Shown one piece after another: positions 1,328 through 7,067 of a DNA stretch of 7,067 nucleotides. Location: NCBI GenBank assembly GCA_022712845.1, contig JAFLJV010000211.1:1-7067 (forward strand), in the 5' to 3' direction. A program made the translations under genes and the position numbers. A model generated the notes under the pieces. The model searched no databases. It was not told the origin of the DNA and saw nothing but the letters and a program-made list of their open reading frames with translations. Source of the DNA: Sulfurimonas sp. GTDB lineage: Bacteria > Campylobacterota > Campylobacteria > Campylobacterales > Sulfurimonadaceae. Numbering within the stretch: the stretch's first letter is position 1; every line of letters starts with the position of its first letter.

Positions 1328-2242
1328 TTACTCCATTACGCTAGAAACTTGATTTTTGCCATTACGTTTTGAGAGATACAGTGCTTTATCTGCTCTTGCA
1401 ATCAAAGTATCAGGAATATCGTTATTAATTAATCTTGTATGACCTATGCTTACTGTTACAGATATTTTTTGTCCCATATATATTAGGTTGTTTGAACTAA
1501 TTAATTTTAATATTCTATGTGCTATAAGGTCGCACTCTTCATCATTATTACGATTTAGAATAATTGTAAACTCTTCGCCACCATATCTAAAAATTTTATC
1601 CCCATCTCTTAGTGTTTTTCTAAGGATATTTGAGATAAATATTAAAATTTTATCTCCAGTTATATGACCATATTTATCATTAATTACTTTAAAGTTATCA
1701 ATATCCAGCATTAATGCGTGAATGTTATAATTAATATCTTTATTTGAACAAACATCACTAAGGTATATATTTAGAGCTCTTCTGTTAAATACTTTAGTCA
1801 GAGCATCTAAATTTGAAGCTTCTTCAAGTACTTTAACTTTGACTGTAAGCTCTGAAATGATTTTATTTGCTTTTTCAACTTCTTCCGTCATATGAGCCTG
1901 AATTTCATCAAATTTAGTAGTTAAAGTAGGTATATCAATGCAGTTATTAGAATATTCATCAATTGTTTGTTCTTGAAGTTGAGTTAACTCTCTAAACTTA
2001 TCATTTGAAAACTCATATGATGATAAACTTTGGTTTAATATATCTTTATATTTATTATTAAAAGATGCTTTAGCATGTTCAATAGAACTCATATCTTCAT
2101 CATTAACATTTGAAATTATATCTACAGAGTCCCTTAGATAGTTAACTACTTGCTCTTTTGTTGAACTTTCATCAGTGTCAATATGTTCAAGCAAATTCTC
2201 ATACATCTCTTTAACAAGATTTTTTAAATCATTTTTTTGCAT
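1328..2242 (-). CDS. Diguanylate cyclase (GGDEF domain), soluble
   Basis: Makes cyclic di-GMP from two GTP. The 304 residues have no signal peptide or membrane segment. Residues 1-140 are a helical, acidic region with coiled-coil character (especially 110-143) and no sensor fold that I recognise. Residues about 144-304 are the GGDEF domain: DALTKVFNRRA (146-156), LDIDNFK with metal ligand D180 (179-185), and the active loop GGEEF (221-225). An RxxD inhibitory site (R212-D215) lies exactly five residues before it. SIGHT (265-269) and ADKALYLSKRNGKN (284-297) complete the fold. All catalytic residues are present and no EAL domain follows, so an active, product-inhibited cyclase is predicted. 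It is first in an operon with cvpA and fur. The start has a TAGG ribosome site and a TATAAT box upstream. Confidence 0.92.
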   Translation of the reverse strand: MQKNDLKNLVKEMYENLLEHIDTDESSTKEQVVNYLRDSVDIISNVNDEDMSSIEHAKASFNNKYKDILNQSLSSYEFSNDKFRELTQLQEQTIDEYSNNCIDIPTLTTKFDEIQAHMTEEVEKANKIISELTVKVKVLEEASNLDALTKVFNRRALNIYLSDVCSNKDINYNIHALMLDIDNFKVINDKYGHITGDKILIFISNILRKTLRDGDKIFRYGGEEFTIILNRNNDEECDLIAHRILKLISSNNLIYMGQKISVTVSIGHTRLINNDIPDTLIARADKALYLSKRNGKNQVSSVME

Positions 2243-5734: not shown

Positions 5735-5758
5735 TTAATCTCTTTAATTATAATGGTA

Positions 5759-5767
5759 ATTGTATCA
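5759..5767 (-). promoter_or_regulatory. Extended -10 promoter of uup
   Basis: The minus strand reads TGATACAAT, a TGn-extended -10 box (TACAAT, 5764-5759), 24 nt before the uup ATG. A perfect TATAAT also occurs at 5752-5747, but it would leave only about 6 nt of leader and would cut into the ribosome site, so it is the less likely choice. Confidence 0.45.
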
Positions 5768-5943
5768 AAATAGACTTTTAATTTAATTTGTAATAATAAC
5801 CAAAATAAGTTATTTTTAATTTTAAGCTAACTATCACTTATTTGATTTATAAATAAATATCTGTATTTTTTACATATTTTATAATTATTCTAAATATTTA
5901 AACTCTGAAATATTGACTTTAAGGTTAACTATATTTTATTTAT

Positions 5944-5949
5944 TATAAA
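5944..5949 (+). promoter_or_regulatory. -10 box of the riboswitch-lipoprotein transcript
   Basis: TATAAA (5944-5949, within TTATAAAAT) would start RNA near 5956-5958, just ahead of the aptamer and its upstream hairpin AAACAT-TAT-ATGTTT (5961-5975). TTGACT at 5913-5918 looks like a -35 box, but its 25-nt spacer is too long. The leader would be about 215 nt. Confidence 0.45.
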
Positions 5950-5974
5950 ATTTCGCCAGAAAACATTATATGTT

Positions 5975-6047
5975 TGTAGCCAAGCCCGTTGTGAAACGGA
6001 GCACGGAAAGCTATGGGTCTTTATTTAAAGATTGCCAGGTTGCCAGT
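5975..6047 (+). ncRNA. Cyclic-di-GMP-I (GEMM-I) riboswitch-like aptamer
   Basis: The order and spacing of conserved parts match the GEMM-I class. The 5' strand is GCCAAGCC (5979-5986; family GGCAAACC). Next is a stem CCGTT/AACGG capped by the GNRA tetraloop GTGA (5986-5999). Then comes the joining strand CACGGAAAGC (6002-6011; family GACGCAAAGC, keeping the A that stacks between the two guanines). The second helix is GGTCTTT/AAAGATT (6016-6032) with loop ATTT. The 3' strand is GGTTGCC (6038-6044), whose first C matches the ligand-contacting cytosine C92 of the Vibrio Vc2 aptamer. In a gapless alignment the position equal to Vc2 G20 is G, which points to c-di-GMP. A shifted alignment would put A there, as in the cGAMP-type variants. 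Deviations include one extra nucleotide after the tetraloop stem and GG for GC before the AAA. It lies on the same strand as, and 127 nt before, a surface lipoprotein gene, a typical target. Confidence 0.8.
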
Positions 6048-6067
6048 TGTATTTTCTTTAAATACAA
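6047..6067 (+). promoter_or_regulatory. Candidate riboswitch expression-platform hairpin
   Basis: TTGTATTT (6047-6054) and AAATACAA (6060-6067) form a perfect 8-bp stem around TCTTT, starting where the aptamer ends. Its 5' arm and loop (6050-6059) can instead pair with the Shine-Dalgarno region 6162-6171 over ten positions, one of them a wobble. The hairpin would thus hide an anti-Shine-Dalgarno sequence. A second weak stem, AGTAA/TTACT (6069-6081) followed by TTT, could be a poor terminator. A translational switch looks more likely. Confidence 0.4.
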
Positions 6068-6162
6068 TAGTAAAAATTACTTTTCTGACAATCTAAACAA
6101 TCAAATATAAAAAAACTTCTAAACTTTCACTATCAGGCTCTCATATATATATTCCTAATTAA

Positions 6163-6167
6163 AAGGA
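6163..6167 (+). promoter_or_regulatory. Ribosome binding site of the lipoprotein gene, possibly masked
   Basis: AAGGA lies 6 nt before the ATG at 6174 and fixes that start. AGGAA (6164-6168) can pair locally with TTCCT (6152-6156). The wider site can also pair with the anti-Shine-Dalgarno stretch at 6050-6059, so access is probably controlled by leader RNA folding. Confidence 0.6.
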
Positions 6168-6173
6168 AATAAA

Positions 6174-7067
6174 ATGCTAAACCAACTAAAAACCATATTA
6201 TTAAGTATAATAACTATACTAACCCTAACCGCCTGTAGTGGTGGAAGCGGAGGAATAGGTGCCGCCCTAGGAGTAGATATAATAGTAGTAGATGGATATA
6301 TTGGTAATGCAAAAGTAATAGATTCAAACGGAAATATTGCAAAATATAAATCAAATGGAACATACACATTTACTCCAGCACCAATAGGGACTATAACAGT
6401 AACAGGAGGAGTGTTCGAAGATACAGGACTTCCAAATATAATGATATATAAAGTATCAGCAACTTCAAGAGTAATATCCCCAATAACATCATTCCTATAT
6501 AAATATTCACATCTTCAAGATAAGATATTAACAGCCCTAGGAGTAAGTTCACTAGAACTACTAGGTGACTTCGTAAAATCAAATAAAATAGAAGTAGCAA
6601 AACTAGCACAACTAATATATGCAATGAATGTAAACTCAATAGAAGATGATTTTGCAAACAGATTAACTAATGATACAGACCCAACAGATATAGATGATAT
6701 ATTTGCAAAAGTAAAAATAGTAGTAACTGCAAATAATCCAATAAGAGCAACAGAGATAGAAATATTTTTAGATGCAGTTGCTGTTTATGTAGGAAGTGTA
6801 TCTGACTTTGAAGTAGCTATAGAAACAGAAAAAAAGAGTACTCATGAAAGTGAAGATAATAACAACTTAAATAATGATAATTCTGATAATAATAACTCAG
6901 ATAATGATTCAAACTCAACACAAATTTATACAATAACCACAACTTTAAACACAGGTGGAAATATTACTCCAAGTAGTGTAAGTGTAGATAGTGGAGATAC
7001 AACTTATTTTACAGCTATTTCTGATAGTAATTATACTATTAGTAGTGTAAGTGGTTGTGGTGGCTCT
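6174..7067 (+). CDS. Surface lipoprotein with InlB B-repeat-like domain, 3' end beyond window
   Basis: The frame is open for 298 codons and runs off the right edge without a stop, so the protein is partial. Residues 1-20 are a lipoprotein signal peptide ending in the lipobox LTAC, with C21 the lipidated residue. Ser at +2 and a flexible GGSGG suggest outer-membrane sorting. Residues about 38-115 (VDGYIGNAKVIDSNGN, later SRVISPITSF) resemble the beta-sandwich start of many secreted bacterial proteins. Residues about 116-218 look helical. A linker of mostly Asn, Asp and Ser spans 226-249. From 251 on, YTITTTLNTGGNITPSS and TISSVSGCGG match the divergent InlB B-repeat pattern of cell-surface proteins. 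The product is probably an adhesin or other exposed protein; the exact role is unknown. The upstream riboswitch-like leader predicts control by c-di-GMP. Isoleucine codons are almost all ATA up to residue 216, then mostly ATT, unlike the other genes here. Confidence 0.82.
   Translation, partial: MLNQLKTILLSIITILTLTACSGGSGGIGAALGVDIIVVDGYIGNAKVIDSNGNIAKYKSNGTYTFTPAPIGTITVTGGVFEDTGLPNIMIYKVSATSRVISPITSFLYKYSHLQDKILTALGVSSLELLGDFVKSNKIEVAKLAQLIYAMNVNSIEDDFANRLTNDTDPTDIDDIFAKVKIVVTANNPIRATEIEIFLDAVAVYVGSVSDFEVAIETEKKSTHESEDNNNLNNDNSDNNNSDNDSNSTQIYTITTTLNTGGNITPSSVSVDSGDTTYFTAISDSNYTISSVSGCGGS

What the first reader, a model, noticed from the sequence alone, without database searches (positions are those of the whole stretch)
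5975..6047. GEMM-I-like c-di-GMP riboswitch in a campylobacterotal genome, upstream of a surface lipoprotein
The conserved strands, GNRA-capped stem and joining AAAGC of the c-di-GMP-I class are visible in the right order. The sequence also departs from the textbook consensus: GCCAAGCC for GGCAAACC, GGAAAGC for GCAAAGC, a GTGA loop, and an extra nucleotide or bulged A beside the tetraloop stem. Riboswitch control by c-di-GMP is not a familiar theme in Campylobacter or Helicobacter, so this may be a lineage-specific variant.
Basis: partly seen in the sequence, partly recalled or inferred. Interest (0 to 1): 0.72.

Follow-up and report, generated by a model that had tools for sequence, protein, structure and literature searches.

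The report
c-di-GMP riboswitch before lipoprotein gene
The stretch is a real RNA switch for the bacterial signal molecule c-di-GMP, of an already described sub-type, sitting in front of a surface-lipoprotein gene of a Sulfurimonas-like bacterium; its unusual letters are mostly the normal form in this lineage.

Summary
Confirmed. Rfam RF01051 (c-di-GMP-I) matches 5969-6047 + full length above its cut-off (44.0 bits, cut-off 35); a model of 43 relatives without the window gives 70.9 bits. G20, A47, C92 and the C44-G83 pair are kept, which predicts c-di-GMP, not cGAMP. Most 'departures' are explained: GCC/GG is a swapped 21-46 pair, present in 73 of 75 aptamers examined, and the GTGA loop belongs to the GYRA-loop, receptor-less 'type II' in print (PMC11218506). 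The form is probably not confined to Campylobacterota: viral contigs of 40-61% G+C carry it. RF01051 occurs in 34 of 80 Sulfurimonas-type genomes and 42 of 397 of the phylum. Of 57 aptamers with a recognised downstream ORF, 40 precede signal-like proteins. Private to the window: G25/C42 for A25/G42 and a bulged A (exact pattern in 0 of 135 congeners). Unresolved: how binding controls the gene. No terminator, no significant P1 or anti-aptamer; best guess is translation control at a Shine-Dalgarno hairpin.

The parts
5969..6047 (+). c-di-GMP-I (GEMM-I) riboswitch aptamer, GYRA-loop receptor-less type; core G5979 (Vc2 G20) to C6043 (Vc2 C92)
   Evidence: Rfam RF01051 44.0 bits, cut-off 35; R2 without the window 70.9 bits
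5980..6006 (+). P2 hairpin: basal pairs C5980-G6006 and C5981-G6005 (swapped 21-46 pair), upper stem 5985-5990/5995-6001 with bulged A6000, GUGA loop 5991-5994; G5984/C6002 (Vc2 25/42) can pair
   Evidence: alignment and pair counts, R2 alignment
6009..6041 (+). P3 hairpin with the nearly invariant UCU/AGA (6018-6020/6029-6031), the CU/AG helical receptor expected for a GYGA loop; G6034 (Vc2 G83) for the C44-G83 interhelical pair with C6004
   Evidence: loop-receptor rule from PMC3494683 passages
6007..6009 (+). A47-A48-A49 joining strand of the ligand pocket (A6007 = Vc2 A47)
   Evidence: alignment A1: A in 68, 68 and 67 of 68 rows
5944..5951 (+). possible -10 element (TATAAAAT) for the leader transcript; tentative
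   Evidence: read from the sequence; the consensus scan found no more promoter-like sites than shuffles (4 against a mean of 4.0) and none here
5961..5975 (+). small hairpin AAACAU/AUGUUU just 5' of the aptamer; possible competitor of P1
   Evidence: fold; 5954-5980 not better than shuffles (96 of 500)
6046..6068 (+). A+U-rich hairpin GUUGUAUUU/AAAUACAAU just 3' of the aptamer; possible part of the expression platform
   Evidence: fold of 6044-6090, 26 of 500 shuffles as good
6152..6168 (+). hairpin UUCCU/AGGAA that holds the Shine-Dalgarno sequence; candidate site of translation control
   Evidence: fold of 6140-6190, 38 of 500 shuffles as good; SD letters G6165, G6166 unpaired probability about 0 in the leader ensemble
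6174..7067 (+). presumed regulated gene: lipoprotein, at least 298 aa, lipobox-like LTAC at Cys21, weak InlB B-repeat-like C-terminal stretch; runs off the window
   Evidence: PF18998 E 0.0083, below its cut-off; no NCBIfam match

Best explanation
It is the aptamer of a c-di-GMP-I riboswitch of the GYRA-loop, receptor-less type, in the 5' leader of a surface-lipoprotein gene. Shown here: family membership by sequence and structure, the paired architecture across relatives, and the conserved contact letters. Inferred: the GUGA loop of P2 docks on the CU/AG pairs of P3, which lays P2 beside P3 (with C44-G83) and closes a pocket in which c-di-GMP stacks on A47 and is read by G20 and C92. Less certain: binding changes expression of the lipoprotein. 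Since no intrinsic terminator is seen and the Shine-Dalgarno letters lie in a predicted hairpin (6152-6168), control of translation start is the likeliest output; I guess, at little better than even odds, that the signal switches the gene on.
For: RF01051 above its cut-off; R2 without the window 70.9 bits, inside the range of other type-II copies outside the training set. 68-row alignment: 97.3% of cells paired, 13 of 22 pairs changed on both sides, 225 such cells against a mean of 69 in shuffles and 7-59 in slid controls. G20, A47, C92, C44, G83 kept in the window; these are the contact letters and interhelical pair named for Vc2/Vc1 (PMC4744006 passages; PMC3764141 passages). GUGA loop with CU/AG in P3 fits the (inexact) GYGA-AR/YU rule (PMC3494683 passages). 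A GGDEF protein is encoded in the same window, with GGEEF, an RxxD stretch and the Asp of YGHxxGD (by eye; residue roles recalled), so the cell can probably make c-di-GMP. Of 57 aptamers (out of 75) with a recognised downstream ORF, 40 precede a signal-like N-terminus against 104 of 551 background ORFs; lipobox-like 10 against 7.
Against: A25 and G42, listed as highly conserved in PMC3764141, are G and C here, and A6000 bulges P2; the exact pattern is in none of 135 congeners. The unconstrained minimum-energy fold of the whole leader keeps P2 but breaks P3, and is 6.6 kcal/mol better than the fold with the aptamer fixed (-42.8 against -36.2). P1 is not better than shuffles (112 of 200). Fixing the aptamer does not change predicted SD access (0.51 and 0.51) and lowers that of the AUG (0.87 to 0.67); the possible anti-aptamer strand 6084-6094 is not significant (p 0.13). 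The lipoprotein has no scoring homologue, so this leader cannot be compared with an orthologous one. No binding or expression data exist.
Confidence: 0.9

Rival explanations
1. It is a GEMM-Ib-like riboswitch that reads 3',3'-cGAMP rather than c-di-GMP.
For: G20 is described as a selectivity factor, not a hard filter (PMC9262584 passage); P2 of the window is altered at 25/42.
Against: Position 20 is G; the G20A change is what lets a c-di-GMP-I aptamer bind cGAMP (PMC7288161 passages). The window's GGDEF keeps the Asp that Hypr enzymes replace by Ser (PMC6456294 passage; placed by eye).
Confidence: 0.04
2. It is a decaying copy: it descends from a c-di-GMP-I riboswitch but no longer binds or controls well.
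For: Two highly conserved letters changed plus a bulge, seen in none of the other 74 aptamers, exact pattern absent from 135 congeners; the free leader fold breaks P3; no recognisable expression platform.
Against: The two changes are compensatory (G25 can pair with C42); all contact letters are intact; R2 score 70.9 ranks 19th of 44 rows, amid the type-II copies. Position 25/42 also varies in other copies (A-G in 48 of 68 rows, C-T in 11). Other leaders also fold better freely than with the aptamer fixed.
Confidence: 0.12
3. The aptamer acts on transcription (intrinsic or Rho-dependent termination) rather than on translation.
For: Class-I switches use terminators or sequesters (PMC11218506 Introduction); the 130-nt A+U-rich leader could hold a Rho site.
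Against: No terminator-like site in 5740-6260; 1 of 40 leaders looked at has one between P3 and start codon. Rho use was not tested.
Confidence: 0.3
4. Chance resemblance, no functional RNA.
For: Folding energy alone is unremarkable (75 of 500 shuffles).
Against: E 2.7e-6 and 2.4e-17 for sequence plus structure; position in a leader before a lipoprotein, as for some relatives.
Confidence: 0.01

Closest known systems
c-di-GMP-I riboswitch, RF01051, GYRA-loop 'type II' without tetraloop receptor (as named in PMC11218506)
   Same: GYRA loop, P3 a plain hairpin, G20/A47/C92, C44-G83, leader of a membrane/surface gene
   Different: G25/C42 and bulged A6000 in P2; P1 and expression platform not recognisable
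Vc2 aptamer of Vibrio cholerae (classical, GAAA loop)
   Same: overall P2/P3 architecture and ligand-contact letters
   Different: 21-46 pair is G-C there (numbering partly recalled), C-G here; GAAA loop there, GUGA with CU/AG helix here
RF03167 c-di-GMP-I-GGC
   Same: same clan; short P3; 40.4 bits
   Different: below its cut-off of 59 bits, although the type-II copies on 4 of 5 viral-contig stretches pass it
GEMM-Ib cGAMP riboswitches of Geobacter
   Same: same fold
   Different: A at the position of G20 there (recalled; G20A effect in PMC7288161 passages), G here

Membership tests
RF01051 c-di-GMP-I | score above the curated gathering cut-off over the full model | tested here: met
   44.0 bits, cut-off 35, positions 1-87 of 87
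RF01051 c-di-GMP-I | ligand-contact letters G20, A47, C92 | tested here: met
   G5979, A6007, C6043; residue list from PMC4744006 passages
RF01051 c-di-GMP-I | interhelical Watson-Crick pair C44-G83 | tested here: met
   C6004 and G6034; C-G in 66 of 68 rows
RF01051 c-di-GMP-I | P2 and P3 paired and covarying in relatives | tested here: met
   97.3% of cells paired; 13 of 22 pairs with changes on both sides. The 67 relatives were themselves found with RF01051, which favours the family structure
RF01051 c-di-GMP-I | P1 helix from flanking strands | tested here: inconclusive
   best 5'/3' pairing no better than shuffles, 112 of 200; only 2 of 38 leaders tested reach 10 of 200 or fewer
RF01051 c-di-GMP-I | binds c-di-GMP and changes gene expression | not testable with these tools
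   needs in-line probing and reporter assays
c-di-GMP-I type II | GYRA tetraloop and no tetraloop receptor | tested here: met
   GUGA at 5991-5994; P3 a plain hairpin; definition from PMC11218506 Introduction
GEMM-Ib (cGAMP) | A at position 20 | tested here: not met
   G5979
RF03167 c-di-GMP-I-GGC | score above gathering cut-off 59 | tested here: not met
   40.4 bits

The most novel reading that the evidence does not exclude
Free-living Campylobacterota run a large, little-described c-di-GMP riboregulon for exported proteins that works without intrinsic terminators, and this copy carries a rebuilt P2 internal loop (A25-G42 turned into G25-C42 with a bulged A) that retunes affinity or selectivity of the pocket.
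Probability: 0.15. Interest if true: 0.5.

Novelty: new member of a known kind. Interest (0 to 1): 0.32.

Why it matters
It adds a clear case to a riboswitch class whose presence in Campylobacterota I found undescribed in the papers I could search, and shows that the odd letters are a compensated, widespread sub-type rather than noise. The wider pattern (34 of 80 Sulfurimonas-type genomes; up to 10 matches in one genome of the phylum; 40 of 57 recognised downstream ORFs signal-like) would make c-di-GMP control of surface proteins in these bacteria directly testable with reporters.

Tried and rejected
P1 as 5958-5963/6052-6057: fits by eye but is 6.7 kcal/mol worse than the fold with P2 fixed alone (-19.4 against -26.1); best 5'/3' duplexes are no better than shuffles. 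Anti-aptamer strands downstream: no enrichment over 37 leaders (P3 3' strand p<=0.05 in 2 of 37, Fisher 0.87). Change of SD access on fixing the aptamer: it rises by more than 0.1 in 1 and falls in 3 of 38 leaders, so no direction can be read off. Intrinsic terminators: 0 in 5740-6260 of the window, 1 of 40 leaders. The 38, 37 and 40 leaders are the part of the 75 for which I had picked a nearby start codon. Orthologous leader next to the ABC-F gene: none of 80 loci aligned to the window's leader (blastn, E 0.01). Homologues of the lipoprotein: none at E 0.001 among 3063 candidates; one N-terminal match in 36 genomes (L155), without an Rfam match at the gathering threshold in the locus. The idea that GCC/GG is confined to Campylobacterota was given up as unlikely after 5 viral-contig stretches of 40-61% G+C carried it; their hosts are unknown.

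The 75 aptamers are the window plus 74 loci: all 25 matches, all 23 and 26 of the matches (its best-scoring ones, one locus a genome, so biased to good copies). Alignment A1 has 68 of the 75; left out were L106 and L113 (classical GGC/GC), L124, L126, L129, L131 and L147 (the last five read GCC/GG). Of the 73 'swapped' copies 72 are C-G and one (L083) U-G. One search aligned minus-strand loci unturned and is superseded; my notebook entry 1 is wrong in calling all loci plus-oriented. Numbering by Vc2 is my transfer from papers; I could not place G90 of PMC3764141. The background contains many copies of one ABC-F gene and uses a longer minimum ORF length, so its contrast is indicative only.

Full report
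WHAT IS THERE. Rfam finds one RNA family in the window at its curated threshold: RF01051, c-di-GMP-I, 5969-6047 +, 44.0 bits against a cut-off of 35, E 2.7e-6, full length. The sister family RF03167 gives 40.4 bits, below its cut-off of 59. The aptamer core runs from G5979 to C6043; the next gene, an ORF of at least 298 aa with a lipobox-like N-terminus, starts at 6174. Neighbours are a Fur-family regulator, a Colicin_V/CvpA-family protein, a GGDEF protein, a class-II DAHP synthase and an ABC-F protein. No genome is held for the window; its ABC-F protein is 73-89% identical to the 80 loci kept, most of them titled Sulfurimonas, so the source is Sulfurimonas-like.

HOW COMMON IT IS. RF01051 is over its cut-off in 18 of 40 and 16 of 40 of the genomes that hold those loci, and in 42 of 397 genomes drawn from the phylum (stricter filters), with up to 10 matches in one genome. 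My model R1 has a match at E 0.001 in 50 of 135 genomes of the genus of G014 (R1 was trained partly on these, and three of the matches, at 34-35 bits, are weak). None of the 14 control genomes rings.

STRUCTURE AND COVARIATION. The 74 fetched aptamers were oriented and aligned with the window; 68 rows went into A1. With the family structure, 97.3% of cells pair, 13 of 22 pairs change on both sides, and 225 cells show such a change, against a mean of 69 in shuffles and 7-59 when strands are slid. Since the rows were found with RF01051, this supports the structure in the lineage but is not independent of the family model. The fairer test is R2, made from 43 relatives without the window: 70.9 bits at 5969-6047 and nothing else in the window up to E 1. 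Among the other sources, type-II copies outside the training set score from 38 to 87 bits (many are close kin of training rows); classical copies score 24-55, except L167 at 70.

THE ODD LETTERS. In the 68 rows of A1 position 46 is G in 68 and position 21 is C in 67 and T in 1; with the seven rows left out, 73 of 75 carry the swapped pair (72 C-G, one U-G) and two (L106, L113) the classical G21-C46. So GCC...GG is a compensated base pair. The loop is GYRA in 62 of 68 rows, and P3 has UCU/AGA in nearly all rows (pairs 51-75, 52-74, 53-73 unchanged in 67, 68 and 67 of 68). A GYGA loop tends to go with an AR/YU receptor, a correlation its authors call inexact (PMC3494683, passages), so I read the GAAA/receptor module of classical members as replaced by a GUGA/CU-AG helix contact. 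PMC11218506 (Introduction) describes just this division: type I with GNRA loop and receptor, type II with GYRA loop and no receptor. The GCC/GG form also sits on 5 viral-contig stretches of 40-61% G+C, and the classical form on 8 (exact patterns); the hosts are unknown, but 61% G+C makes confinement to Campylobacterota unlikely.

WHAT IS PRIVATE TO THIS COPY. Positions 25 and 42, A and G in 48 of 68 rows and C/T in 11, are G and C in the window once A6000 is taken as a bulge (R2 alignment; MAFFT places the gap elsewhere). Both are in the list of highly conserved letters of PMC3764141 (passages). None of 135 congeners has the window's exact pattern. Whether this alters function cannot be told here.

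LIGAND. G20, A47 and C92 are kept, the set that contacts c-di-GMP in Vc2 and is conserved in Vc1 (PMC4744006, passages). Position 20 is a selectivity letter; G20A lets the aptamer take cGAMP (PMC7288161, passages; PMC9262584, passage). The window's GGDEF protein has GGEEF, an RxxD stretch and keeps the Asp that Hypr enzymes replace (by eye, roles recalled; PMC6456294, passage). c-di-GMP is therefore the predicted ligand.

TARGETS. Under one rule, 57 of 75 leaders precede an ORF; 40 of the 57 begin with a signal-like stretch against 104 of 551 background ORFs, and 10 against 7 are lipobox-like (the background is biased, see Tried and rejected). Of 20 downstream proteins scanned with Pfam, 13 have a match at E 0.001, among them DUF4214 (two), SdrD_B, DUF11/Calx-beta, CAP, PilJ, NIT, OEP, HATPase_c and cytochrome-like domains; some of these are below Pfam's cut-offs, and 7 of the 20 match nothing. 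The window's own protein has only a sub-threshold InlB B-repeat-like stretch, no NCBIfam match and no homologue at E 0.001.

EXPRESSION PLATFORM. There is no intrinsic terminator in the window leader and one in 40 leaders looked at. No P1 or anti-aptamer stands above controls, and fixing the aptamer shifts SD access in no consistent direction. The free fold of the window's whole leader breaks P3 and is 6.6 kcal/mol better than with the aptamer fixed, which fits either a ligand-stabilised alternative state or a poor aptamer. The SD letters lie in a 5-bp hairpin, 6152-6168 (38 of 500 shuffles fold as well). In a subgroup of 13 relatives a strand like TTTTCT-TATCTATCATAATTT is largely conserved, and its end is complementary in many of them to the stretch over the start codon (by eye), so translation control is plausible in the lineage; the window does not belong to that subgroup. 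The output mechanism is thus inference.

IN PRINT. A transcriptome paper found no metabolite riboswitch but TPP in C. jejuni leaders and cites a prediction of absence in related bacteria (PMC3847290, passages). My searches for c-di-GMP riboswitches with Arcobacter, Campylobacterota, Epsilonproteobacteria or Sulfurimonas gave no paper that describes them there by its title or listed abstract; the A. butzleri genome paper among them does not use the word riboswitch (PMC2147049, word search). Most subscription papers are not in the library, and Rfam's own member lists were not seen.

VERDICT. A genuine c-di-GMP-I riboswitch of a known sub-type, well placed and moderately interesting for its lineage and for the private P2 change; not a new class.

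Noticed in passing
L093 1501-1581 -, L094 1501-1582 -, L095 213-295 +: Three aptamers with A at position 20, the cGAMP-type letter, lie 425-465 nt upstream of an ORF that looks like rpsB (by eye); no ORF conserved in all three is seen between, and no tRNA. The exact pattern is in 3 of 135 congeners. Candidate cGAMP-type or stand-alone elements.
   Followed up: partly
A3: L084, L086, L088, L090, L096, L097, L098, L102, L112, L114, L116, L118, L123: Leaders, mostly of small exported proteins, largely share TTTTCT-TATCTATCATAATTT downstream of the aptamer, complementary to GATAAA near the leader's 5' end and, in many, to the stretch over the start codon (by eye); looks like a translation switch.
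   Followed up: partly
L156-L160 (IMG/VR contigs): Type-II c-di-GMP aptamers on viral contigs, two copies on L160.
   Followed up: no
G299:C1:356375-356473 and 356486-356583: Two c-di-GMP-I aptamers 12 bases apart on the same strand, a tandem arrangement in a genome of the phylum.
   Followed up: no
window 1328-2242 -: GGDEF protein, probably an active diguanylate cyclase, between a Colicin_V/CvpA-family and a DAHP synthase gene.
   Followed up: partly
L155 1486-2897 +: Lipoprotein-like ORF related at its N-terminus to the window's (45% over about 74 aa) whose DNA reads CxxCH motifs by eye; no Rfam match in the locus. Riboswitch-linked lipoproteins L081 and L082 also show CxxCH.
   Followed up: partly
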